Shown here: one piece after another, positions 53,968 to 62,878 of the stretch
Numbering within the stretch: the stretch's first letter is position 1
How the letters are laid out: each line of letters begins with the position of its first letter
NCBI GenBank assembly: GCA_018432315.1
Contig: JAHDLB010000030.1
Location: 1 to 64,000 of the forward strand
Source of the DNA: Anaerolineae bacterium
Lineage (GTDB): Bacteria > Chloroflexota > Anaerolineae > Aggregatilineales > Aggregatilineaceae
Direction: 5' to 3'
Length of the DNA stretch: 64,000 bases
Notes under the pieces: generated by a model
Told to the model about the DNA's origin: nothing
The model's database searches: none
What the model saw: the letters and a program-made list of their open reading frames with translations, nothing else
Translations under genes and position numbers: made by a program

Positions 53968-54049
53968 GCATAATGTACTGCCCTGCGCCAGAGTGAATCT
54001 CGCAAATAAGCGCCCGTTCGCCCGGTCAGTGAAACAACCGGAGGCCCTC

Positions 54050-55021
54050 ATGCCCGAACCACAGGCCCGCATCGTCTTCATGGGAACGCCCGATTTCGCC
54101 GTCCCGACTCTACACGCGCTCATCGACGCGCCCGACATGCAAATCGCCGGCGTCGTCACCCAGCCAGATCGCCCCGCCGGGCGCGGGCGGGCGGTCCAGA
54201 TGCCGCCCGTCAAACAGGCCGCGCTCGACGCAAACCTGCCGGTCATCCAGCCGGAGACGCTGCGCGATCCGGCAGCCGTCGACGCGCTGCGCGCCTGGGA
54301 GCCGGACTTCCTGGTCGTCGTCGCCTTCGGGCAAATTCTGCGCCAGGACGTGCTCGACATTCCGCGCATCGCGCCGGTCAACGTCCACGCGTCGCTGCTG
54401 CCGCGCTGGCGCGGCGCCGCGCCCATTCAGGCGGCCATTCGCGCCGGGGATCCGTACAGCGGGATCACGACGATGGTGATGGACGCCGGGCTGGATACCG
54501 GGCCGATCCTGCTCCAGGACTCGATCCCGATCGCGCCCGACGAAACGGGCCAATCGCTGCACGACAAGCTCGCGCACCTGGGCGCCGACCTGCTGGTGCT
54601 CACCCTGCGCTGGCTGCGCGCCGGCAGCATCTCGCCCCACCCCCAGCCGGCCAACGAAGCGCTGATCACGTACGCGCCCCAGCTCAAGAAAGAGGACGGT
54701 GCGATCGACTGGACCAGCAGCGCGGAGGCCATCGACCGTCACGTGCGGGCGTTCACGCCGTGGCCTGGTACGTACACCTATTGGAATGGCAAGCGGCTCA
54801 AGATTCTGGCGGGGTTCCCACACGGCGCAGCGGGCGGCGTCGCGCCGGGCCACGTCGCGGGGGTCCGGATCGCGGGCGCGAGGGGTGACGCGCCCTTCGC
54901 TATCGGGACGGGCAGCGGGGTTTACGTCCCGACACGGTTACAGCTTGCCGGTCGCCAGCCGGTCGATGCCGCCGAGTTTCTCAACGGCGCGCCCGATTTC
55001 ACCGGCAGCGTCCTGGGCTGA
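54050..55021 (+). CDS. fmt: Methionyl-tRNA formyltransferase
   Basis: 323 residues. Formylates initiator Met-tRNA using 10-formyl-tetrahydrofolate. Motifs: FMGTPDFAVPTL at the start, the Asn-containing APVNVHASLLPRWRGAAPIQ block (family SLLPxxRGAAPI), and DAGLDTGPIL. The C-terminal anticodon-binding domain is about 205-315. GGAGG precedes ATG 54050; an earlier ATG at 53993 lies in the divergent control region. The partner gene def is not seen nearby. Confidence 0.95.
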   Translation: MPEPQARIVFMGTPDFAVPTLHALIDAPDMQIAGVVTQPDRPAGRGRAVQMPPVKQAALDANLPVIQPETLRDPAAVDALRAWEPDFLVVVAFGQILRQDVLDIPRIAPVNVHASLLPRWRGAAPIQAAIRAGDPYSGITTMVMDAGLDTGPILLQDSIPIAPDETGQSLHDKLAHLGADLLVLTLRWLRAGSISPHPQPANEALITYAPQLKKEDGAIDWTSSAEAIDRHVRAFTPWPGTYTYWNGKRLKILAGFPHGAAGGVAPGHVAGVRIAGARGDAPFAIGTGSGVYVPTRLQLAGRQPVDAAEFLNGAPDFTGSVLG

Positions 55022-55024
55022 GCG

Positions 55025-55546
55025 TCACCACTCCTCCCAGTGAACGACCTCTTCCAGCGGCACCCTTCCCCCGGTGCGCGGGGGCCGGCTTCGCGGATCG
55101 GCGTCCGGGTGCGGATAGCCGAACGAGATCGCCCACGGCACGTCCATCTCGCCGGGGATGTGGCACGCCTGCCGCGCCACGTCCGGCTCGTAGATCGTCG
55201 CCATGCACGACGCCACGCCCAGCTCCCAGGCGGCCAGGATCATGTTCTGGCTCGCGCGGCCCAGGTCGAACGGCGTGGTGAGCGTGCGCGGCATGAGCAG
55301 GTCTTCGACGACGAGCACCGCCGCGAACGCCGCCCCGGCCAGGTGCCCGCACCACGGCCCGCATTCGCTGAGCGCCGCCAGCGTCTCGCGCCGGGTGACC
55401 ACCACAAAATGCCACGGCTGTTTGTTCTTGGCCGACCCGGCCAGACGCCCCGCGTTCACGATGGCCGTCATGTCCTCGCGGCTCACCGGTTGATCGGCAA
55501 ACTCGCGGATCGAGCGGTTAGTCTTGATCGCCTGCTGTACTCGCAC
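55025..55546 (-). CDS. Nitroreductase family protein
   Basis: 173 residues, FMN-dependent fold. N-terminal KTNRSIREFADQPVSRED, the FMN-contacting AGSAKNKQPWHFVVV, GRASQNMILAAWELG, and a C-terminal GGRVPLEEVVHWEEW. Members reduce nitroaromatics, quinones or flavin-like cofactors; the substrate is unknown. It starts with GTG after AGGAGA and overlaps the preceding large gene by 29 bases, so it is in the same operon. Confidence 0.88.
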   Translation of the reverse strand: MRVQQAIKTNRSIREFADQPVSREDMTAIVNAGRLAGSAKNKQPWHFVVVTRRETLAALSECGPWCGHLAGAAFAAVLVVEDLLMPRTLTTPFDLGRASQNMILAAWELGVASCMATIYEPDVARQACHIPGEMDVPWAISFGYPHPDADPRSRPPRTGGRVPLEEVVHWEEW

Positions 55547-57317
55547 CGTTCTCTCCTAACGCCGCCCCCTCCTGCACGGCCTTGCGCCTGCGCGATCCCT
55601 GCGCGCTCATCCGGTCCAGCTCCAGGCTGAAGATGCGCTGCAGCGTCGCCACAGCGGTCGCGTAGGTCGGCTCGGCGCCCAGGTAGCTCAGGCGACCGGC
55701 CCCCAGGTTCCGCCCCTTGGACATCGGCGTATCGCTCGCGTAGTGCAAAAACCCGATATCGAAGGGGGCGATATACAGGTTGACGATCTCGTCGACCGGG
55801 TGGCGCTGGGCGCGCACCATCTCGTAGATGGCGGACAGGTACGGCCCGGACTCCATCTCGACGATCGAGTAGCCCTCGCGATAGAACACGTCCATATAGC
55901 GCGCGTTCTGCAAAAACGTGCCGCGCACGCTCACGACTTTCTGGTTGTCCAGCACGCTGGTCAGCGTCAGGTACGGGATCACGTCCGACGCGGTGAAACA
56001 GTTGCCGAACATGTACGAGTTCTGGCTGTGCTCGTCATAGACCACGTTCGCGATCAGCACGTCGCCCACGCGCGCGTTGAGCGTCGCCGCCTTGCCGATC
56101 ACGTAGATGCCCTGCATCCGCGTGACGTACTGGCTGATCTTCGCCAGCACGTGGTACGCTGCCATCCCCAGCGGGTAATCGATGTTGACGATGACCGCGT
56201 CGCTGTCCATCAGCGGATCCATGCCATCCTCGCCGCAGCACACCAGCCGCGGATCGATGCTGTCGAGGTCCAGCTTGTTGAGCTCGATCACCTGGGCCTC
56301 GATGTCGAAGCCGTGCAGGCTCGACACGCGTGTGATCCCCACCGCCCCCTCCACCTCGCGGCGGCGGCGGTCGACATCGGGCAGCGTGGAATAGCGCCGC
56401 AGCGCGTAGTACAGGAAGTTGTTCTTGTTGTTGAGCTCCTCGCGCACGCGCACGTAATCGTATTCCGCCTTCAGCGCGGGATCGTTGGCGCGATCCACGT
56501 AGTCGAGGACCTCGTCTTCTTCCTGCAGCGCAAACCCGCTCAACAGGTTCGGGATGGCGTGCACGTTGCTCGACACGAAATACACGGGCCGGTCTTCGAG
56601 CACCACCGACGGCACCGACTGGCGCACGTTGAACCACCAGTCCGACGTGGCGCGCTGGTAGTTGATGTACGTGCCGGCCAGCAGCCGCAGCATGATCCGC
56701 TTGGGCGCGCTGGCGATCTTCTCCAGCGTGGGGATCATCTGGCTGCCCCAGGCTTCCTGCAAGCGGCTGAGCTCGTCCGGCGACACGCTCAGCACCTTCG
56801 CCAGGTCGGCGGTGCGCGCCAGGGTCGCGTTGGCGCTGTACGCCGCCAGAATCGCCTGGGACGAGGTCGGCTGCAGCAGCCCGTGCAGCTTGTTCCATTC
56901 GATCTGGTAGGCGACCAGGATCGGGATCAAGTCGTCGATGTCCGAGCGGCTCGCGATGTAGGCCGCCAGCGTGTGCTGGCCGTCGAACGCCATCCGGCGG
57001 CGGCGCGCCGGCGCGGAGGAGGACTCCCACGTCTCGATGTCCTCGTAGCCGTAATCGCGGAAGACGCGATCGGTCTGGCCCATCACCACCAGATCGACGT
57101 CGGCCATGCACAGTGGTAGGCGCATGATCGCGTAGAACAGCGCCGACGCGTCCGGCGTGGGCTGGCGCGCGTTGACGTGCAGCGACGAATTCATCGCCAC
57201 GTGGGCCTCGACCAGCGCATCGAGCTGCACCGCGTGGCTGGAACGTAGCAGGGAGTAGTACGTGCGGATGTAAAGCTCGATCTCTTCGCTGCCCGTCTTG
57301 GGTACTGTCCGGTCCAT
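55518..57317 (-). CDS. Large protein with nucleoside-phosphorylase-like C-terminal motifs
   Basis: 599 residues, no signal or membrane helix. Residues 1-330 are mostly helical with no family I can name. Residues about 370-570 carry, in order, GIYVIGKAATLNARVGDVLIA (read as GKAATL near 408 and GDVLIA), VEMESGPYLSAIYE (485-498) and HYASDTP (525-531). These correspond to the G(T/S)AGGL/GDVVV, (E)MExAA and (I)SD blocks of the PNP/MTAN superfamily, in the same order and similar spacing. The ribose-binding Met-Glu pair and the catalytic Asp would be kept. It may act on a nucleoside or bind one. I recall a DUF catalogued for such proteins (DUF6909) but cannot confirm it. It lies 27 bases after a TIR gene. 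Confidence 0.6.
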   Translation of the reverse strand: MDRTVPKTGSEEIELYIRTYYSLLRSSHAVQLDALVEAHVAMNSSLHVNARQPTPDASALFYAIMRLPLCMADVDLVVMGQTDRVFRDYGYEDIETWESSSAPARRRRMAFDGQHTLAAYIASRSDIDDLIPILVAYQIEWNKLHGLLQPTSSQAILAAYSANATLARTADLAKVLSVSPDELSRLQEAWGSQMIPTLEKIASAPKRIMLRLLAGTYINYQRATSDWWFNVRQSVPSVVLEDRPVYFVSSNVHAIPNLLSGFALQEEDEVLDYVDRANDPALKAEYDYVRVREELNNKNNFLYYALRRYSTLPDVDRRRREVEGAVGITRVSSLHGFDIEAQVIELNKLDLDSIDPRLVCCGEDGMDPLMDSDAVIVNIDYPLGMAAYHVLAKISQYVTRMQGIYVIGKAATLNARVGDVLIANVVYDEHSQNSYMFGNCFTASDVIPYLTLTSVLDNQKVVSVRGTFLQNARYMDVFYREGYSIVEMESGPYLSAIYEMVRAQRHPVDEIVNLYIAPFDIGFLHYASDTPMSKGRNLGAGRLSYLGAEPTYATAVATLQRIFSLELDRMSAQGSRRRKAVQEGAALGENGASTAGDQD

Positions 57318-57344
57318 AGTCTTTCCTTAACTCCTACCCCGATC

Positions 57345-57884
57345 CTACACCGGAATGATGCCAAAAGCGATCCCCAACAGCACGCCCGCCACCACGAGCG
57401 CCACCGCCACCAGGAAGCGCCGCCGCCGCTGCTGGCGCGAGATCAACCGTGGTGGGCGGCGCGGCGGGCGAACCTGCGCCGCCGGGTCCGGCGACAGCAG
57501 CAGGCTGGCCGGGCTGGGCACCGCCGCGAGCACGTCGGGCAGCACGTCTTCGTAGGTCCGGGTGCCGTCGACCATCGCCGCGTGCTCCAGGTAGCGCGGC
57601 ACGTCGCCCGGCGAGCGCAGCAGTACCACCACCGGCTTGTGCCGCCGCCGCGCCAGGATCCCCTCGTGGCGAATCCCGGTCCGGCGGCCCTCTTCCGGCG
57701 ACAGGATCATGATCATCGCGCCACAGCCCCGGATCGCGCGCCGGGTTTCGGCGGCCCAGGCCATCGTGCCCGCCTGGGTGACCGGATCGACGAACACCGG
57801 ATAGCCGCTGTCCTGCAGATCGGTCACCAGCCGGTGCGCGAATTCGTGATCATCGGGCGGGTAACTGATGTACAGGTGCTGCAT
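57345..57884 (-). CDS. TIR-domain protein with C-terminal membrane anchor
   Basis: 179 residues. TIR domain about 1-120: HLYISYPPDDHEFAHRLV (strand A with conserved Tyr and Asp), SGYPVFVDP, MAWAAETRRAI, CGAMIMILSPEE, then RHEGILARRRHKPVVVLL where the Glu fits the NADase catalytic position. A Pro/Arg linker follows, then one transmembrane helix at the end (about 157-177). TIR domains cleave NAD+ or mediate protein contacts; the anchored form would place it at the membrane, facing the cytoplasm. GGGAGG precedes the ATG. It sits 12 bases after the peptidase gene and 27 before the PNP-like gene. Confidence 0.82.
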   Translation of the reverse strand: MQHLYISYPPDDHEFAHRLVTDLQDSGYPVFVDPVTQAGTMAWAAETRRAIRGCGAMIMILSPEEGRRTGIRHEGILARRRHKPVVVLLRSPGDVPRYLEHAAMVDGTRTYEDVLPDVLAAVPSPASLLLSPDPAAQVRPPRRPPRLISRQQRRRRFLVAVALVVAGVLLGIAFGIIPV

Positions 57885-57896
57885 GGCGCCTCCCGG

Positions 57897-59486
57897 CTAG
57901 TTGGCGAACTTCATCACGAAGTAGTCCGGGTTCAGTTTCTCGCCGGTCGCGGCTTCCAGCGCGTCGTTCCAGTGCAGCGTCGCGCCCAGGGCGAACACGC
58001 GCTCGCGGAAGAAGTCCCCGGCCTCACGCCGTCCGACGATTCCGCCCGCGTGCTCGGCCAGCCAGCGATCCCATTGCAGCGACATCATGCGCCCCAGCAG
58101 GTAATTCTGGTAATAGGCCGGCACCAGCGCCACGTGATACTTGGTGGCCCAGTCCGGCAGGTGCTCGCGCCCTTCCGGCTTGTTGAGGAACTGGTACTTC
58201 TGCACGAGATCCCACCACGTGGCGTCCAGGTCGCGCGAGGGGTCCTCGTACAACAGCCGCTCGAAGTTCACCACGACCATCACCCACCGCGCGAAGATCA
58301 GCTCTTCGAGGCGGAAGCGGGCCGCGCTCGCCGCGCCGATGGTCGCCGCCTGCGACGGTGACGCCCCCAGATAGCGCACGTGCCATTCCGGGTCCAGCGT
58401 CTGCGCGCCCATCAACATCGCCATCGCCTCGGTGCTCAGAATGTGCGGGAAGGTGCGCAGCAGCCACGGCAGGTTCTGCGGGATGTATTTGTCGTACACG
58501 CCGTGGCCCAGCTCGTGCAGCAGCGTTTCCATCCAGCGCAGCACCGGCTGGAGGTTGCACAGCGTCCGCACATCGCCCTCGCGATCGACGTGCATACAAA
58601 ACGCGTGCTGGTCCTTACCCTCGCGCTCGTACAGGTCGCTGCGGTCCAGAATGTCGCGCACGTCCATGCCCAGATCGTCATACGTGCGCACCGCCAGCTC
58701 GACCAGGTTCTGCCCGGTAAACGGCGCGTCGTAATCGAACTCGCCGATCATCGGCGCGCGCTGGAAGAACGGATCGGCGTAGTGCCACGGCATCAGGTCG
58801 GCGGCGGGCACGCCAAACCGGTCGCTGAGCTGCGCGTCCATGGCGGCCTTCGCCCGGCGGTATGGCTCGTCGATCTTCGCCGCCAGGTCGTCCAGCATGC
58901 CGTACAGCCAGTCCGGGTCCAGCTCGTTGAGCGCCAGGCTCATGCGGTGGAAATTCTCGTAGCCCATGCGGTGCGCCGCGTCATTGCGCAGCTCGGCCAG
59001 CCGCCGGATCGAGTCCGCCACGCGCGGGCCGATCCGCTTGCTGGCTTCCCACGCGGCGCGCCGCCGGTCGGAATCCGTTTCGTTGGCGAGAATCGCGTCG
59101 ATGGCGTTGGCCGTCAGGCGCGCGCCATCCACCTCGGCGCGGAAATTGGTGTAGGCGTCGTCCAGGGTCTTCGACAGCGCCGTGATCTCGTCGATCGTCT
59201 CCGGATCGCGCTGCCCTTCGGCATAGCCCAGGTGCAGCATGTGCACCATCCGGGCGAGTTGCGCATCGTCGCCTGCCGCGCCATTTTCGTCCCACGTCTT
59301 GAACCGGTGATAGGCGTCGGGATTGGCCCAGAACCGCATCCATTCGGCGCGCGCCCCTGCCGCCGCGTCCAGCGCCTTCTGCCCCCCGGTGGTGGAGGCT
59401 TCCCAGTTGGTCAAATTCAGCTTGATGAACCGCTCACGTATCTGGGCTGTTGTCTCGTCTACAGCCGCCCGCACTGCGTCCGACAT
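57897..59486 (-). CDS. M2/M3-like zinc peptidase
   Basis: About 529 residues, cytoplasmic, mostly helical. The gluzincin motif is HELGHGVYD near residues 328-336, followed by WLLRTFPHILSTEAMAML with the downstream Glu ligand. This pattern (HExxH with Y-D after it, then LLR and EA) is closer to M2 angiotensin-converting-enzyme-like dipeptidases than to classic M3 oligopeptidases, but the two belong to one superfamily. It probably trims peptides. ATG 59486 has GAGGAG upstream. It is the first gene of the leftward operon with the TIR and PNP-like genes. Confidence 0.8.
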   Translation of the reverse strand: MSDAVRAAVDETTAQIRERFIKLNLTNWEASTTGGQKALDAAAGARAEWMRFWANPDAYHRFKTWDENGAAGDDAQLARMVHMLHLGYAEGQRDPETIDEITALSKTLDDAYTNFRAEVDGARLTANAIDAILANETDSDRRRAAWEASKRIGPRVADSIRRLAELRNDAAHRMGYENFHRMSLALNELDPDWLYGMLDDLAAKIDEPYRRAKAAMDAQLSDRFGVPAADLMPWHYADPFFQRAPMIGEFDYDAPFTGQNLVELAVRTYDDLGMDVRDILDRSDLYEREGKDQHAFCMHVDREGDVRTLCNLQPVLRWMETLLHELGHGVYDKYIPQNLPWLLRTFPHILSTEAMAMLMGAQTLDPEWHVRYLGASPSQAATIGAASAARFRLEELIFARWVMVVVNFERLLYEDPSRDLDATWWDLVQKYQFLNKPEGREHLPDWATKYHVALVPAYYQNYLLGRMMSLQWDRWLAEHAGGIVGRREAGDFFRERVFALGATLHWNDALEAATGEKLNPDYFVMKFAN

Positions 59487-59659
59487 TCGGGTCAACTCCT
59501 CAATTGGCCGGATACACGATTGTCTCCCAAGATATAACACAAAGCCGGGCGAAAAACGAGACGCGCCCGCCTTTCGGATCGCGCGCGAGTAGGCTATGAT
59601 TCGGTTGTTCGACTCTTCGACACGTGACCTGCGGGCTGGCCTGAAGGATGAATCGACCG

Positions 59660-60535
59660 ATGAGAGACCTGATTGTGAATGCTGACGACTTTGGGCGCGC
59701 GCCGGGCGTCAACCGGGGCATTCTCGAAGCCTACGAAGCCGGCATTGTCACCTCCACCACCGTCATGATCAATTTTCCGGACGCCGCCGCCGGGCTGGAA
59801 CAGGCGCTCGCCAGCGCGCCCGACCTGGGCATCGGCCTGCACCTGAACCTGACCTCGGGCCGCCCGGTGCTGCCCGCCGAGCGCGTCCCTTCGCTGGTGA
59901 ATGACGATGGCCGGTTTCACCACATCCAGGACTGGGCCGCCCACATGGACGCGTTCGAGCCGGATCACATCCGTGCCGAGCTCGTCGCCCAGCTCGACCA
60001 TTTCCTGAGCCTCGCCGGGCGCCCGCCCGATCACCTCGACGCGCACCACCACGCCATCTATCTCCACCCGGACGCGCTGCCGGTGATGCTCGAATTCGCC
60101 CACAGCTACAACCTGCCCATCCGCGACACGCAGCTCAGCGCGCTCGACGACTCGCCGGACGGCGCGCTGGCCGAGCTGATGAGCATCGTGCCCGGCCTGT
60201 CGGACCTCGCCGCGCAGAAACTCGTCGAGCGCCTGCGCCATGCGCTGGACCAGGGACCGGCTCCCCACTGCCCGGCGCGGCTGGAGCTTGGGTTCTACGA
60301 CAAACAGGCGACCCTCGGCAACCTGTTGGTGATCCTCACCAACCTGCCGGAGGATCGCCCCACCGAGCTGATGTGCCATCCGGGCTACGTCGACGAGGTG
60401 CTCGGCGCCAGCGGCTACGTGCACGGGCGCGAAGCCGAGATCGGCCACCTGACTCACCCGGCCACGCTGGAATGCATCCGCTCCGAGGAGATCCGGCTCA
60501 TTACCTTCGGCGACCTGGCGCGGAGCGCAGCATGA
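59660..60535 (+). CDS. ChbG/HpnK family deacetylase (YdjC-like)
   Basis: About 291 residues. The metal and catalytic blocks are complete: IVNADDFGRAPGVNRG, IGLHLNLTSG, DHLDAHHHAIYLHP, and MCHPGYVDE. The family removes N-acetyl groups from chito-oligosaccharides or hopanoid glycolipids. No signal peptide, so cytoplasmic. Start ATG 59660 fits the family's short N-terminus; ATG 59648 is an alternative. It overlaps the next gene by 4 bases (ATGA), so it is coupled to the dead-2H-like gene. Confidence 0.88.
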   Translation: MRDLIVNADDFGRAPGVNRGILEAYEAGIVTSTTVMINFPDAAAGLEQALASAPDLGIGLHLNLTSGRPVLPAERVPSLVNDDGRFHHIQDWAAHMDAFEPDHIRAELVAQLDHFLSLAGRPPDHLDAHHHAIYLHPDALPVMLEFAHSYNLPIRDTQLSALDDSPDGALAELMSIVPGLSDLAAQKLVERLRHALDQGPAPHCPARLELGFYDKQATLGNLLVILTNLPEDRPTELMCHPGYVDEVLGASGYVHGREAEIGHLTHPATLECIRSEEIRLITFGDLARSAA

Positions 60536-61551
60536 CCGACTATTACGACCCCGACGACGATCTGTTCTCTTACGAAGATTTCGAGGACATCGACAACGCG
60601 GCGTGGGACCCCGACGCGCTGGAGCCGATCGATCTCACCGAGCTTGACAGCGACGACGATCTGCAAGCGCCCAGCGACGCAGCGGAAGAACTGCTGGAGC
60701 GCATCGAGACGCTGGACGACGAGATCCCGCCGCGCCCGCCGGAGCCGTCCCTCGCGGATCCGCGCCTGGTGGACGACGAACGCCCCGCCGACGAATACGA
60801 ACCCCCGGACGACGATGAGCCCGGCGAGGAAGCCGAAATGCTCGAAGACGAGGAGCCCGGCGCGGACGATCTGCCCGAAGAAGCGCCGCCGCCCCGCGAG
60901 CGAACGATCCGCATCGGCGGACGCGGGCGGATGCAGCGGCTCCCGCTGGGGCCGCCCCCCACCCGCCCCGAGACAACCCACCGCGAAGCAGAGCTACACG
61001 CTCCGCCGGATGACGTGTACCGGCTGGCCCTGGCGCTGCCGCTCGACCTGGGCGCGGAAGTGCTGGAACTGCGCGCGCTGGGCGAGATCGAGGAAATGCC
61101 GCCGCCGGGGATCGACCTGGCCTTCGCGTTCCGGGCGGATGACCTGGCCGCCGCCGAGAGCGCGATCGCGGCCTGGGCGGAACGCTATCTGCCGCTGGAG
61201 CTGTCGCTCGCCGAGATCGTGGCCGAGGTCGCCGGGGCGCAGCAGTACATCGCCGCGTGGCGCGTCGAGCCGAACGCCGCCCTGCAGGACGCCCAGCTCG
61301 CGCTCCGGCGCGCGCTGACTCCACTGGTGACGCCGCTCGCCGAAGGGCCGGCAGCCCTCCAGCCGCGCATCGTCATCGGGGCGCACGTACCGGCCCGCAC
61401 CTACCCGCTGGTCATCGGCCAGATGCAGCGCGATTTCGCGCCCTTCGCGTGGCACGTCGCCTCAGTGGCCCTGTTCCGCGCCGAGGCGGGTGCCGATCCC
61501 GGCGCGTGGGAGCTGGCTCGCGCTTTTGGCTCCTCCGCCGGGCGCGAGTGA
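60532..61551 (+). CDS. Acidic protein with degenerate 2H/LigT-like domain
   Basis: 339 residues. The first 130 or so are strongly acidic and Pro-rich, probably disordered, with a short basic block (IGGRGRMQRL). Residues about 160-335 follow the 2H (LigT/2'-5' RNA ligase) pattern: a YRLALALPLD strand, then IDLAFAF at the place of the first HxT strand, WAERYLPLELSL, a helix LRRALTPLV, QPRIVIGAHVP at the second HxT place, and FAWHVASVALFRAE with a final W. In active 2H enzymes both strands hold HxT; here they read IDL and RIV. It is probably a non-catalytic binder, or not 2H at all. It is coupled to the deacetylase, and the SLATT genes follow after 38 bases. Confidence 0.55.
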   Translation: MTDYYDPDDDLFSYEDFEDIDNAAWDPDALEPIDLTELDSDDDLQAPSDAAEELLERIETLDDEIPPRPPEPSLADPRLVDDERPADEYEPPDDDEPGEEAEMLEDEEPGADDLPEEAPPPRERTIRIGGRGRMQRLPLGPPPTRPETTHREAELHAPPDDVYRLALALPLDLGAEVLELRALGEIEEMPPPGIDLAFAFRADDLAAAESAIAAWAERYLPLELSLAEIVAEVAGAQQYIAAWRVEPNAALQDAQLALRRALTPLVTPLAEGPAALQPRIVIGAHVPARTYPLVIGQMQRDFAPFAWHVASVALFRAEAGADPGAWELARAFGSSAGRE

Positions 61552-61589: not shown

Positions 61590-62363
61590 ATGTCCGAGCA
61601 ACCCGCATCCAACGCCACACCCGCCTCGATCGCGCCGTTCTATACTACCGAGCCTGACGAGCGCTCCCGGTTGTTCTTCCGGCGCCGCCGCCCCCGGTGG
61701 AGCTATCCGCGCGATTGGGTCCGCCCGCCGGAAGATCAGTACCAGGAGGAACTGGCCCGCGAAGGGTTCATCACCGACCAGTTTGCCCAACAGGCGCTCC
61801 GCCAGTCCATCTCTGACGACCTGCGCATCGAGCTGCGCGAGCTGGACCAGCACCTGCTGCCGCACTTCTGGCGGCTGGACCAGGAAGCCAAGTATTATCA
61901 GAACCGGCATTTTCTGTTCCAGTGGACGTTCATCATCTCGGCGTTTCTGACGACCGCCCTGGCCGCGGCGAGCGTATTCGCCTACGCGAAGGACTGGCAG
62001 GGGACGACGGGCCTGATACCGGCGGCGTTTGGCCTGGCGACGGCGATCGTCAGCGGAATCGCGGCTGCCGTGTCGTACCTGGACGCCAACCAGACGCCCC
62101 AGCGGCGCTGGTTCCAGGCGCGGGCCCAGGCGGAAAGCCTGCGATCGCTGTATTTCCTGTTCATCGCCCGCCAGCCGCCGTTCGACACGCCCTCGGTCCG
62201 GGAACGCGTCGAGATCATGCGCCAGAAGGTGGTCGACGTCCTCACCGAAAAGACCGCGCCCAACCGCCGCGCAACCGACAAGGACCAGCCCCAGCGCCCG
62301 CCCACGCCCGCGCCACCCGCACCCGAGCCTGAAGAACCCGCAGACGAGGAAGAATCACGATGA
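61590..62363 (+). CDS. SLATT/DUF4231-like two-helix membrane protein
   Basis: 257 residues. A basic N-terminus, an amphipathic lead-in (LDQHLLPHFWRLDQEAKYYQNRH), two transmembrane helices (about 113-133 and 142-165), then a conserved helical tail (WFQARAQAESLRSLYFLFIA, 20 residues long) and a Pro/Glu-rich end. This order is that of DUF4231/SLATT domains, proposed in the literature to be membrane effectors in nucleotide-signalling defence systems. AGGGAGAGAG precedes the ATG. It overlaps the next gene by 4 bases. Confidence 0.72.
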   Translation: MSEQPASNATPASIAPFYTTEPDERSRLFFRRRRPRWSYPRDWVRPPEDQYQEELAREGFITDQFAQQALRQSISDDLRIELRELDQHLLPHFWRLDQEAKYYQNRHFLFQWTFIISAFLTTALAAASVFAYAKDWQGTTGLIPAAFGLATAIVSGIAAAVSYLDANQTPQRRWFQARAQAESLRSLYFLFIARQPPFDTPSVRERVEIMRQKVVDVLTEKTAPNRRATDKDQPQRPPTPAPPAPEPEEPADEEESR

Positions 62364-62878
62364 GCGAGCAGGTCACACTCATGTCGGAAGAAGAGGCCCA
62401 ACTGCGCAGCATGTTGTACCTGCGCCAGCGCGTCGATTTTCAGGAAGAGTATTACCGGAAGCGAATCGACGAGTTCACCTTCAACTCGGACAAGATGCTG
62501 TGGGTATCCGCGGCCCTGATGGCAACCTCGACCGTCGTATCGTCCTATTCGATGGTGGCGAATGGCGTGGTGCTGTCGTTCATCACGGCGCTGCTGCCCG
62601 CCTGCGCGACGGCGGTCGCGGCGTTTCGCTCACTCTACCAGTGGCAGCGCCAGGCGACGCTCTACGACGCCAGCCGCCTGTCGCTCTTGCAGGCAAAGCT
62701 CGCCATGCCGGACACGGATTTTCTCGAGCCGGGCGACTACGCGCGCTATTTCCCGCAGTTGGTCCAACAGGCGGAGACGGTGCTGCGGAACGAGGCCGCC
62801 CAGTGGGGCCAGCTCGAAGGCGTGCTGACCAGCGGTATCACGGCTGCCGACTTGCAGCCGCCCGCCCCGCCGGAATAG
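62360..62878 (+). CDS. Second SLATT-like two-helix membrane protein
   Basis: 172 residues. Lead-in helix (VDFQEEYYRKRIDEFTFNSDK), two transmembrane helices (about 50-70 and 74-95), and a C-terminal helical part (WQRQATLYDASRLSLLQAKLAM, 22 residues described in two: WQRQATLYDAS and LSLLQAKLAM). The layout matches the protein before it, so the two could form hetero-oligomers. Its ATG overlaps the stop of the previous gene. The transcript ends just before the convergent mltG. Confidence 0.7.
   Translation: MSEQVTLMSEEEAQLRSMLYLRQRVDFQEEYYRKRIDEFTFNSDKMLWVSAALMATSTVVSSYSMVANGVVLSFITALLPACATAVAAFRSLYQWQRQATLYDASRLSLLQAKLAMPDTDFLEPGDYARYFPQLVQQAETVLRNEAAQWGQLEGVLTSGITAADLQPPAPPE

What the first reader, a model, noticed from the sequence alone, without database searches (positions are those of the whole stretch)
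55025..59486. Operon pairing a membrane TIR protein with a nucleoside-phosphorylase-like protein
Four minus-strand genes are packed with gaps of 12, 27 and -29 bases: M2/M3-like peptidase, TIR with a C-terminal membrane helix, a 599-residue protein with PNP/MTAN-type blocks (GKAATL...GDVLIA, VEMESGPY, YASDTP), nitroreductase. TIR domains can make NAD-derived nucleotides, and PNP-family proteins bind or cleave nucleosides, so one could make and the other sense or remove a signal. Both superfamilies are used in bacterial immunity. I know of no described system with this set.
Basis: partly seen in the sequence, partly recalled or inferred. Interest (0 to 1): 0.68.

Follow-up and report, generated by a model that had tools for sequence, protein, structure and literature searches.

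The report
Purine-type enzyme beside lineage-specific TIR gene
A bacterial protein family of unknown function turns out to look like a nucleoside-cleaving enzyme that sits in a purine-oxidation-type operon in related bacteria; its pairing with an immune-type TIR gene is confined to one bacterial family and is probably not a shared system.

Summary
The four genes are real and at the stated places. The 599-residue protein is DUF6909 (PF21850). Its predicted structure (pLDDT 90, pTM 0.90) has a nucleoside-phosphorylase fold over residues 224-567 (Z 19.8), and the VEME and SD motif residues are kept in at least 122 of 123 rows.

The TIR/nucleosidase pair is weakly supported. TIR orthologues occur in 16 of 18 genomes of this family, always beside DUF6909; 33 DUF6909-bearing order-mates outside lack one. 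Within the family unrelated flanking genes are syntenic too, and one genome lost TIR and peptidase but kept DUF6909. In 45 of 66 other near loci DUF6909 lies with xanthine-dehydrogenase-like genes. All 16 family genomes with that xdhA keep those genes without DUF6909, so it probably moved.

Best reading: a purine-linked nucleosidase beside an accessory TIR gene. No activity was tested.

The parts
55518..57317 (-). DUF6909 protein (PF21850), 599 aa: largely helical N-terminal part plus a nucleoside-phosphorylase-fold domain
   Evidence: PF21850 E 8.3e-213; model pLDDT 90.4, pTM 0.90
55617..56648 (-). nucleoside-phosphorylase-fold domain, residues 224-567, holding E487-M488-E489 and S528-D529
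   Evidence: VIA-align Z 19.8, rmsd 2.7, 214 aligned against 3uay; conservation
57345..57884 (-). TIR protein, 179 aa, candidate catalytic Glu E74 in the invariant R-H-E
   Evidence: TIR_2 1.5e-12; model and Foldseek to SPARTA and SARM1 TIRs; alignment
57354..57410 (-). C-terminal membrane helix of the TIR protein (residues 159-177)
   Evidence: hydropathy; helix 150-173 in the model
57897..59486 (-). M2/M3-type zincin peptidase (ORF opens at 59540; most relatives align from about residue 19)
55025..55546 (-). nitroreductase-family protein, 173 aa
   Evidence: PF00881 1.7e-21
53993..55021 (+). fmt, methionyl-tRNA formyltransferase (flank, syntenic in the family)
   Evidence: TIGR00460 above cut-off
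59648..60535 (+). YdjC-like protein, first gene of the divergent gene set
   Evidence: PF04794 3.2e-60
60532..61551 (+). protein with a 2'-5' RNA ligase / 2H-type C-terminal part, just under Pfam's cut-off
   Evidence: PF13563 8e-06, 26.4 bits against cut-off 27
61590..62363 (+). SLATT_3 / DUF4231 two-helix membrane protein
   Evidence: PF18184 4.5e-10, PF14015 2.7e-12
62360..62878 (+). SLATT_1 membrane protein
   Evidence: PF18181 6.3e-13

Best explanation
DUF6909 is a large nucleosidase-type enzyme of the nucleoside-phosphorylase superfamily, most likely hydrolysing the N-glycosidic bond of a purine nucleoside or nucleotide. In an ancestor it was part of a purine-oxidation-type operon with a xanthine-dehydrogenase-like molybdenum hydroxylase that carries selenium-cofactor markers; in the ancestor of the window's family it moved to the fmt-ydjC segment, behind a peptidase gene and a lineage-specific, tail-anchored TIR gene. 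The TIR is probably an NADase-type signalling or effector protein that does not need DUF6909; if it has partners nearby, the divergently encoded SLATT pair and 2H-like protein are likelier. Shown here: fold, conserved motif residues, operon context, the empty place in the family's hydroxylase operon, the deletion case. Inferred: relocation (from gene order), hydrolysis rather than phosphorolysis (the GDPxR loop of E. coli PNP and uridine phosphorylase reads SSNxH by eye, with S249, N251 and H253 invariant), the purine substrate, and TIR activity.
For: Fold: model pLDDT 90.4, pTM 0.90; Foldseek top hit AMP nucleosidase 2guw, E 4.6e-7; VIA-align Z 19.8 to adenosine phosphorylase 3uay, with PNP, uridine phosphorylase, MTAN and AMP nucleosidase at 18.9-19.8 among the 50 rows shown. 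E487, M488, E489, D529 in 123 of 123 rows and S528 in 122 of 123; all five also in a Persicobacter homologue 21.7% identical to the window's. Context: of the 66 non-family loci among the 80 nearest, xdhBC lies within five genes in 45, xdhA is next downstream in 34, a small membrane-protein gene is next upstream in 25, and yqeB or yqeC accompany xdhBC in 25. A canonical PNP gene lies downstream on the same strand in 10 loci, two of them (L083, L156) apparently one contig. The own-genome operon has YqeB and YqeC equivalogs above cut-off and only 13 bases where DUF6909 sits elsewhere; 16 of 16 family genomes with the xdhA orthologue have xdhBC-small protein-xdhA without DUF6909 between. In G403/L033 TIR and peptidase are missing while DUF6909, nitroreductase, fmt and ydjC stay.
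Against: No activity is known. Profile comparison with E. coli PNP, uridine phosphorylase, MTAN and AMP nucleosidase is not significant (hhalign probability 0.7%, E 0.076), only collinear at three motifs. The hydroxylase link is confined to class Anaerolineae: of 60 loci drawn across the phylum only L160 has xdhBC (apparently the same contig as L074) and L156 yqeC. Across 400 genomes YqeC and DUF6909 do not co-occur more than expected: 22 of 95 YqeC genomes have DUF6909, against 140 of 400 overall. So the purine link rests on operon context in one class, and 20 of the 66 near loci show no xdh gene. A canonical PNP is also present, so DUF6909 would need its own substrate. DUF6909 lies on the TIR's strand and contig in 16 of 16 family genomes, as a functional pair would too.
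Confidence: 0.55

Rival explanations
1. One reading: TIR makes an NAD-derived nucleotide and DUF6909 senses or removes it, as a two-gene immune or stress module.
For: Same strand, 27-base gap; on the same contig and strand in 16 of 16 TIR-bearing family genomes; TIR under purifying selection, dN/dS 0.13-0.28 in the pairs with dS under 0.45; E74 kept in every TIR sequence read. PNP-superfamily and TIR effectors both occur in described conflict systems (passages of PMC10952713 and PMC7159879).
Against: No TIR orthologue of family-like score in 33 DUF6909-bearing genomes of the order outside the family (one search scored at most 43 candidates per genome); flanking genes are syntenic as well; DUF6909 kept where TIR and peptidase are deleted; TIR-DUF6909 gap is 241-283 bases in three loci and 1240 in a fourth; DUF6909 is one copy per genome in nearly all and widespread, which I read as metabolic rather than defensive.
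Confidence: 0.13
2. The real module is TIR plus the divergent SLATT_3/SLATT_1 pair (with the 2H-like protein and perhaps the zincin peptidase): TIR makes an ADP-ribose signal that opens SLATT pores; DUF6909 is a bystander. This is compatible with the best explanation's view of DUF6909 but claims more for the TIR.
For: SLATT pair about 4 kb from the TIR in the divergent gene set. PMC9503650 (passage) reports phage TIR genes in conserved neighbourhoods with 2TM SLATT, sometimes with a zincin-like metallopeptidase; PMC7159879 (passage) reports PNP and TIR effectors with SLATT. Pair present with TIR in the window and L038, L039, L040, L210, L213; both missing at the locus in L033.
Against: L034 and L044 have TIR without SLATT at the locus; the other TIR-bearing contigs end too early or are rearranged; no whole-genome SLATT search was made; the two gene sets diverge, so co-expression is not shown; PADLOC gives only a weak SLATT hit (RTasSLATT, E 0.0072).
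Confidence: 0.22
3. DUF6909 is a catalytically dead or regulatory PNP-fold protein that binds a nucleotide through its N-terminal part and controls neighbouring enzymes.
For: The N-terminal part holds invariant residues too (R105-R107 in 123 of 123); the GDPxR phosphate loop is replaced (sequence).
Against: The Glu and Asp motif residues are unchanged down to a 21.7% identical Bacteroidota homologue, which is unusual for a dead enzyme.
Confidence: 0.1

Closest known systems
AMP nucleosidase (Amn; e.g. 2guw, 1t8w)
   Same: NP-I fold preceded by a long N-terminal part; Foldseek's best match; a hydrolase (recalled); its IGHCGGL segment resembles VIGKAATL in my reading of the sequences
   Different: no significant sequence relation; only model residues 215-571 align; N-terminal parts not compared
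E. coli-type PNP, uridine phosphorylase, MTAN (PF01048)
   Same: fold (Z about 19-20) and VEME / SD motifs (uridine phosphorylase has YEME and no SD; sequences)
   Different: PF01048 not matched; extra N-terminal part and an insertion; the GDPxR loop of PNP and UP reads SSNxH
Selenium-dependent molybdenum hydroxylase operons (xdh, yqeB, yqeC; PMC2276186, PMC11448449, passages read)
   Same: an operon of this kind is the commonest setting of DUF6909 in the near Anaerolineae loci; markers confirmed by NCBIfam for the own-genome operon only
   Different: 'nucleosidase' occurs 0 times in the main text of either paper; the window's copy lies outside the operon
Cap17/Detocs PNP effectors (PMC10952713, PMC11249213, passages read)
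   Same: PNP-superfamily fold acting on nucleotides
   Different: those are listed with PF01048 and PF18178; DUF6909 matches neither in Pfam at E <= 0.1, nor any PADLOC model
TIR-SLATT neighbourhoods (PMC9503650, passage read)
   Same: TIR, SLATT and a zincin peptidase lie together here
   Different: bacterial chromosome, divergent gene sets, SLATT missing at the locus in L033, L034 and L044

Membership tests
Nucleoside phosphorylase (NP-I) superfamily | NP-I alpha/beta fold | tested here: met
   Z 19.8, rmsd 2.7, 214 aligned; Foldseek 552 PDB matches at E <= 0.001 in all; on a predicted model
Nucleoside phosphorylase (NP-I) superfamily | ribose-binding Glu in an EME motif and catalytic Asp in an SD motif, as in PNP and MTAN (roles recalled) | tested here: met
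   E487/M488/E489 and D529 in 123 of 123, S528 in 122 of 123; residue-level superposition not done
Nucleoside phosphorylase (NP-I) superfamily | matches the PF01048 profile | tested here: not met
   only PF21850 at E <= 0.1
Phosphate-dependent phosphorylase (PNP/UP) | GDPxR phosphate loop | tested here: inconclusive
   the stretch I take as equivalent reads SSNxH (S249, N251, H253 in 123 of 123), but the equivalence is by eye, without superposition
AMP nucleosidase | AMP-specific hydrolysis and Amn-type N-terminal domain | not tested
   no assay; N-terminal part barely covered
TIR NADase | TIR fold with catalytic Glu | tested here: met
   E74 aligns with a Glu of 8qlo; the catalytic role of that place is recalled
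TIR NADase | cleaves NAD | not testable with these tools
   needs an assay
Thoeris | adjacent ThsA-type effector (SIR2-SLOG, macro etc.) | tested here: not met
   none among the neighbouring genes scanned with Pfam or PADLOC
Cap17/Detocs PNP effector | PF01048 with PF18178 (TPALS) | tested here: not met
   no PADLOC hit for DUF6909
TIR-SLATT module | TIR and SLATT genes stay together | tested here: inconclusive
   together in window, L038, L039, L040, L210, L213; TIR alone at the locus in L034, L044; other contigs too short or rearranged
Selenium-dependent molybdenum hydroxylase operon | YqeB and YqeC equivalogs beside xdh genes | tested here: met
   own-genome operon L209: TIGR03309 361.8 bits (cut-off 220), TIGR03172 166.6 (73.05); concerns the operon that DUF6909 seems to have left, not the window. 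The xdh subunits themselves score below NCBIfam's cut-offs for xanthine dehydrogenase, so the substrate is open

The most novel reading that the evidence does not exclude
A chromosomal conflict module unique to this Anaerolineae family: a tail-anchored TIR makes an ADP-ribose-type signal, DUF6909 recruited from purine metabolism cleaves the adenine or nicotinamide glycosidic bond of that signal (an off switch or a second signal), a 2H-like protein opens cyclic products, and the SLATT_3/SLATT_1 pair forms the responding membrane pore.
Probability: 0.09. Interest if true: 0.8.

Novelty: new variant of a known kind. Interest (0 to 1): 0.42.

Why it matters
DUF6909 is present in 140 of 400 Chloroflexota genomes, is 'of unknown function' in Pfam, and the library search for its name found no paper. 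A confident nucleoside-phosphorylase fold with intact motif residues, and an operon place between subunits of a molybdenum hydroxylase, make its function directly testable. If right, it would add a large, probably phosphate-independent branch to the superfamily and a possible step in purine use by uncultured Chloroflexota. The case also shows how adjacency inside one family can mimic a defence system.

Tried and rejected
Profile comparison with PF01048-type proteins of related genomes was uninformative: the first run picked wrong strands; in the second the set was still mixed (L236 wrong frame; three rows under 200 aa dropped; best E 0.0026 at probability 11.7%). With four E. coli proteins the result was not significant. 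PDB sequence search with the DUF6909 profile gave only chance hits (ferritins, one phospholipase). Folds not listed are not excluded, and the N-terminal part was not searched alone (no structure jobs left).

Co-occurrence of DUF6909 with YqeC over 400 genomes was tested and did not support a general link. Attempt to polarise the insertion with fmt: the eight order-mates outside the family read around fmt (L302-L309) show none of the window's other 13 genes within the fetched stretch, a ninth (L313) only part of nnr. In the family genome G407 (75% complete, no DUF6909 or TIR found) fmt keeps D462, C165 and B110 near but in another order (L310). Promoter/terminator scan was at chance level. PHROGs gave nothing for DUF6909 or TIR; on plasmids DUF6909 was found only in Persicobacter, 2 records. 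PADLOC over ten other window proteins gave weak AAA hits and DndA/SspA hits on an aminotransferase-V protein, which I take for housekeeping look-alikes; the rest of the window was not scanned.

Rows dropped: sequences under 520 aa, then those 90% or more identical to a kept one (124 of 139 kept); then L143 out and the Persicobacter row in. The tree is FastTree only. My gene caller is a longest-ORF heuristic and mislabels some loci (TIR of L039 and L040, peptidase of L032 and L044, DUF6909 of L035; checked by tblastn). L053 had a weak TIR-like hit several genes downstream at E <= 1e-3, gone at 1e-6. In the gap table L035 gives a senseless DUF6909-nitroreductase value from a broken frame and was not used. 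Some loci of different origin seem to be the same contig (e.g. L034/L211, L074/L160, L083/L156), so counts across the sets are not summed.
Full report
1. What is there. The four minus-strand genes were confirmed at the given coordinates with the given gaps and named by Pfam: M2/M3-type zincin peptidase, TIR_2, DUF6909 and nitroreductase. PADLOC, on these four, finds only the TIR part of TIR-pAgo-type and SAVED-TIR models and one weak PDC-S66 hit. The window's genome holds one DUF6909 gene. A contig of the same length as a named Bellilinea contig occurs among the 'same class' genomes (L025 and L100), so the class is probably Anaerolineae (my inference).

2. The 599-residue protein. DUF6909 occurs in 140 of 400 Chloroflexota genomes and in 0 of 14 control genomes; a paper search for the name finds none. 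A model from 70 aligned sequences has pLDDT 90.4 and pTM 0.90. Foldseek puts AMP nucleosidase first (E 4.6e-7). VIA-align gives Z 19.8, rmsd 2.7 over 214 residues for adenosine phosphorylase 3uay; the 50 rows shown lie at 18.9-19.8 and are tied (PNP, uridine phosphorylase, MTAN, AMP nucleosidase). The fold spans residues 224-567; the first 220 residues were hardly tested. Over 123 rows, E487, M488, E489 and D529 never vary and S528 once; a Persicobacter plasmid homologue at 21.7% identity has all five. By recalled knowledge these correspond to M180-E181 and S203-D204 of E. coli PNP. The GDPxR loop of E. coli PNP and uridine phosphorylase (sequences) reads SSNxH here, which suggests a hydrolase; this alignment is by eye. 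Sequence-profile comparison is not significant.

3. The TIR. It models as a TIR fold (pLDDT 85), closest to SPARTA TIRs, with SARM1 among the top ten. R72-H73-E74 is invariant in 13 aligned sequences, and R-H-E is in all 17 rows read (some rows are the same genome). E74 aligns with a Glu of 8qlo. Pairs with dS under 0.45 have dN/dS 0.13-0.28, so the gene is under selection; it changes faster than DUF6909 (same call).

4. How far the pairing goes. In the family, 16 of 18 genomes have the TIR orthologue (E <= 2e-70) and 17 of 18 have DUF6909; by coordinates all 16 TIR genes lie on a contig and strand with DUF6909, adjacent except in G410, where 1240 bases intervene (L042). G403 has DUF6909 without TIR; G407 has neither; both genomes are only 73-75% complete. 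In 81 genomes of the order, DUF6909 is in 50 (17 family, 33 others) and the TIR orthologue in 16, all family; a distant hit in G472 (E 1.3e-23) lies in a 591-codon frame on a contig other than that of its DUF6909; the peptidase is in 16 family genomes and two others (at most 43 candidates per genome were scored). Among the 80 nearest loci, TIR lies upstream of DUF6909 in 12 of the 13 family loci that can be judged (L043 starts inside DUF6909), and in none of the 66 others by tblastn, some of which have short flanks. In a FastTree tree the family rows form one supported clade, L045 (no TIR) is its sister, and the next clade is 27 of 28 hydroxylase-linked.

5. The control that matters. Genes with no obvious link to signalling (NAD(P)HX repair, a polyketide-cyclase-like gene, fmt, ydjC, a transglycosylase-like gene by recalled resemblance) keep their order across many family loci too, as far as contigs reach (names); in eight order-mates outside the family none of them lies in the stretch fetched around fmt. 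So adjacency within the family is largely background synteny. There are exceptions (L036, L037, L042, L216, L310 show changed or missing neighbours). L033 (G403) keeps fmt, nitroreductase, DUF6909 and ydjC and lacks peptidase and TIR; 37 bases that match the stretch just before the conserved start of the L034 peptidase remain, which points to deletion.

6. Where DUF6909 otherwise sits. Of the 66 non-family near loci, an xdhBC fusion gene is within five genes in 45, xdhA is next downstream in 34, a small membrane protein next upstream in 25, and yqeB or yqeC accompany xdhBC in 25; 20 show no xdh gene in range. The window's genome has the same operon on another contig, with YqeB and YqeC equivalogs, the selenium-hydroxylase marker pair (PMC2276186 and PMC11448449, passages), but with 13 bases between the small gene and xdhA. 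All 16 family genomes with this xdhA show xdhBC-small gene-xdhA without DUF6909 between. A canonical PNP gene lies downstream in 10 loci (L083 and L156 apparently one contig) and beside the operon, on the other strand, in the own genome. Hence DUF6909 probably left a purine-type operon and came to lie behind TIR. Limits: the link is class-bound (1 of 60 phylum-wide loci has xdhBC, L160, apparently the same contig as L074), YqeC and DUF6909 do not co-occur across 400 genomes beyond expectation (22 of 95 against 140 of 400), and the xdh subunits score under NCBIfam's xanthine dehydrogenase cut-offs.

7. What else is there. The divergent gene set holds a YdjC-like gene, a protein with a 2H-type part just under Pfam's cut-off, and SLATT_3 and SLATT_1 proteins. 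Passages of PMC9503650 and PMC7159879 tie TIR to SLATT, the former also to a zincin peptidase. SLATT genes lie at the locus in the window and five loci and are missing there in L033, L034, L044. This makes a TIR-SLATT link a serious rival, though not a shown one.

8. Verdict. Observation confirmed; fold prediction right; the two-protein system not supported beyond one family's synteny. Known PNP-type effectors (Cap17/Detocs) are listed with other domains (PMC10952713, PMC11249213, passages). In seven searches of the library I saw no listing that describes DUF6909 or a TIR-DUF6909 system; only the listed rows were seen, and the library lacks most subscription papers.

Noticed in passing
window 61590-62878: Overlapping SLATT_3/DUF4231 and SLATT_1 genes in the gene set divergent from the TIR operon; present at the same place in L038, L039, L040, L210, L213 and missing there in L033, L034, L044.
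   Followed up: partly
window 60532-61551: Acidic N-terminal stretch followed by a 2'-5' RNA ligase/2H-like part (26.4 bits against a cut-off of 27).
   Followed up: no
L209:3543-14477 (G000 contig C41): Molybdenum hydroxylase operon with selenium-cofactor markers, a calcineurin-like phosphoesterase gene, and an unnamed 133-aa membrane protein whose relatives lie between xdhBC and xdhA in all 16 family genomes that have xdhA.
   Followed up: partly
L100, L106, L108 (also L091, L101, L109): DUF6909 lies next to, or one small ORF from, a hydrogenase-maturation-protease-like gene, in L100 behind complex-I/hydrogenase-like genes (names from recalled resemblance; L100 is Bellilinea).
   Followed up: no
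G000 and G400-G416: Most genomes of this family carry several further TIR genes (4 to 14 hits of the window TIR profile per genome; one in G403).
   Followed up: no
L235:8001-9689: Distant DUF6909 homologue on a Persicobacter (Bacteroidota) plasmid, so the family is not limited to Chloroflexota.
   Followed up: partly
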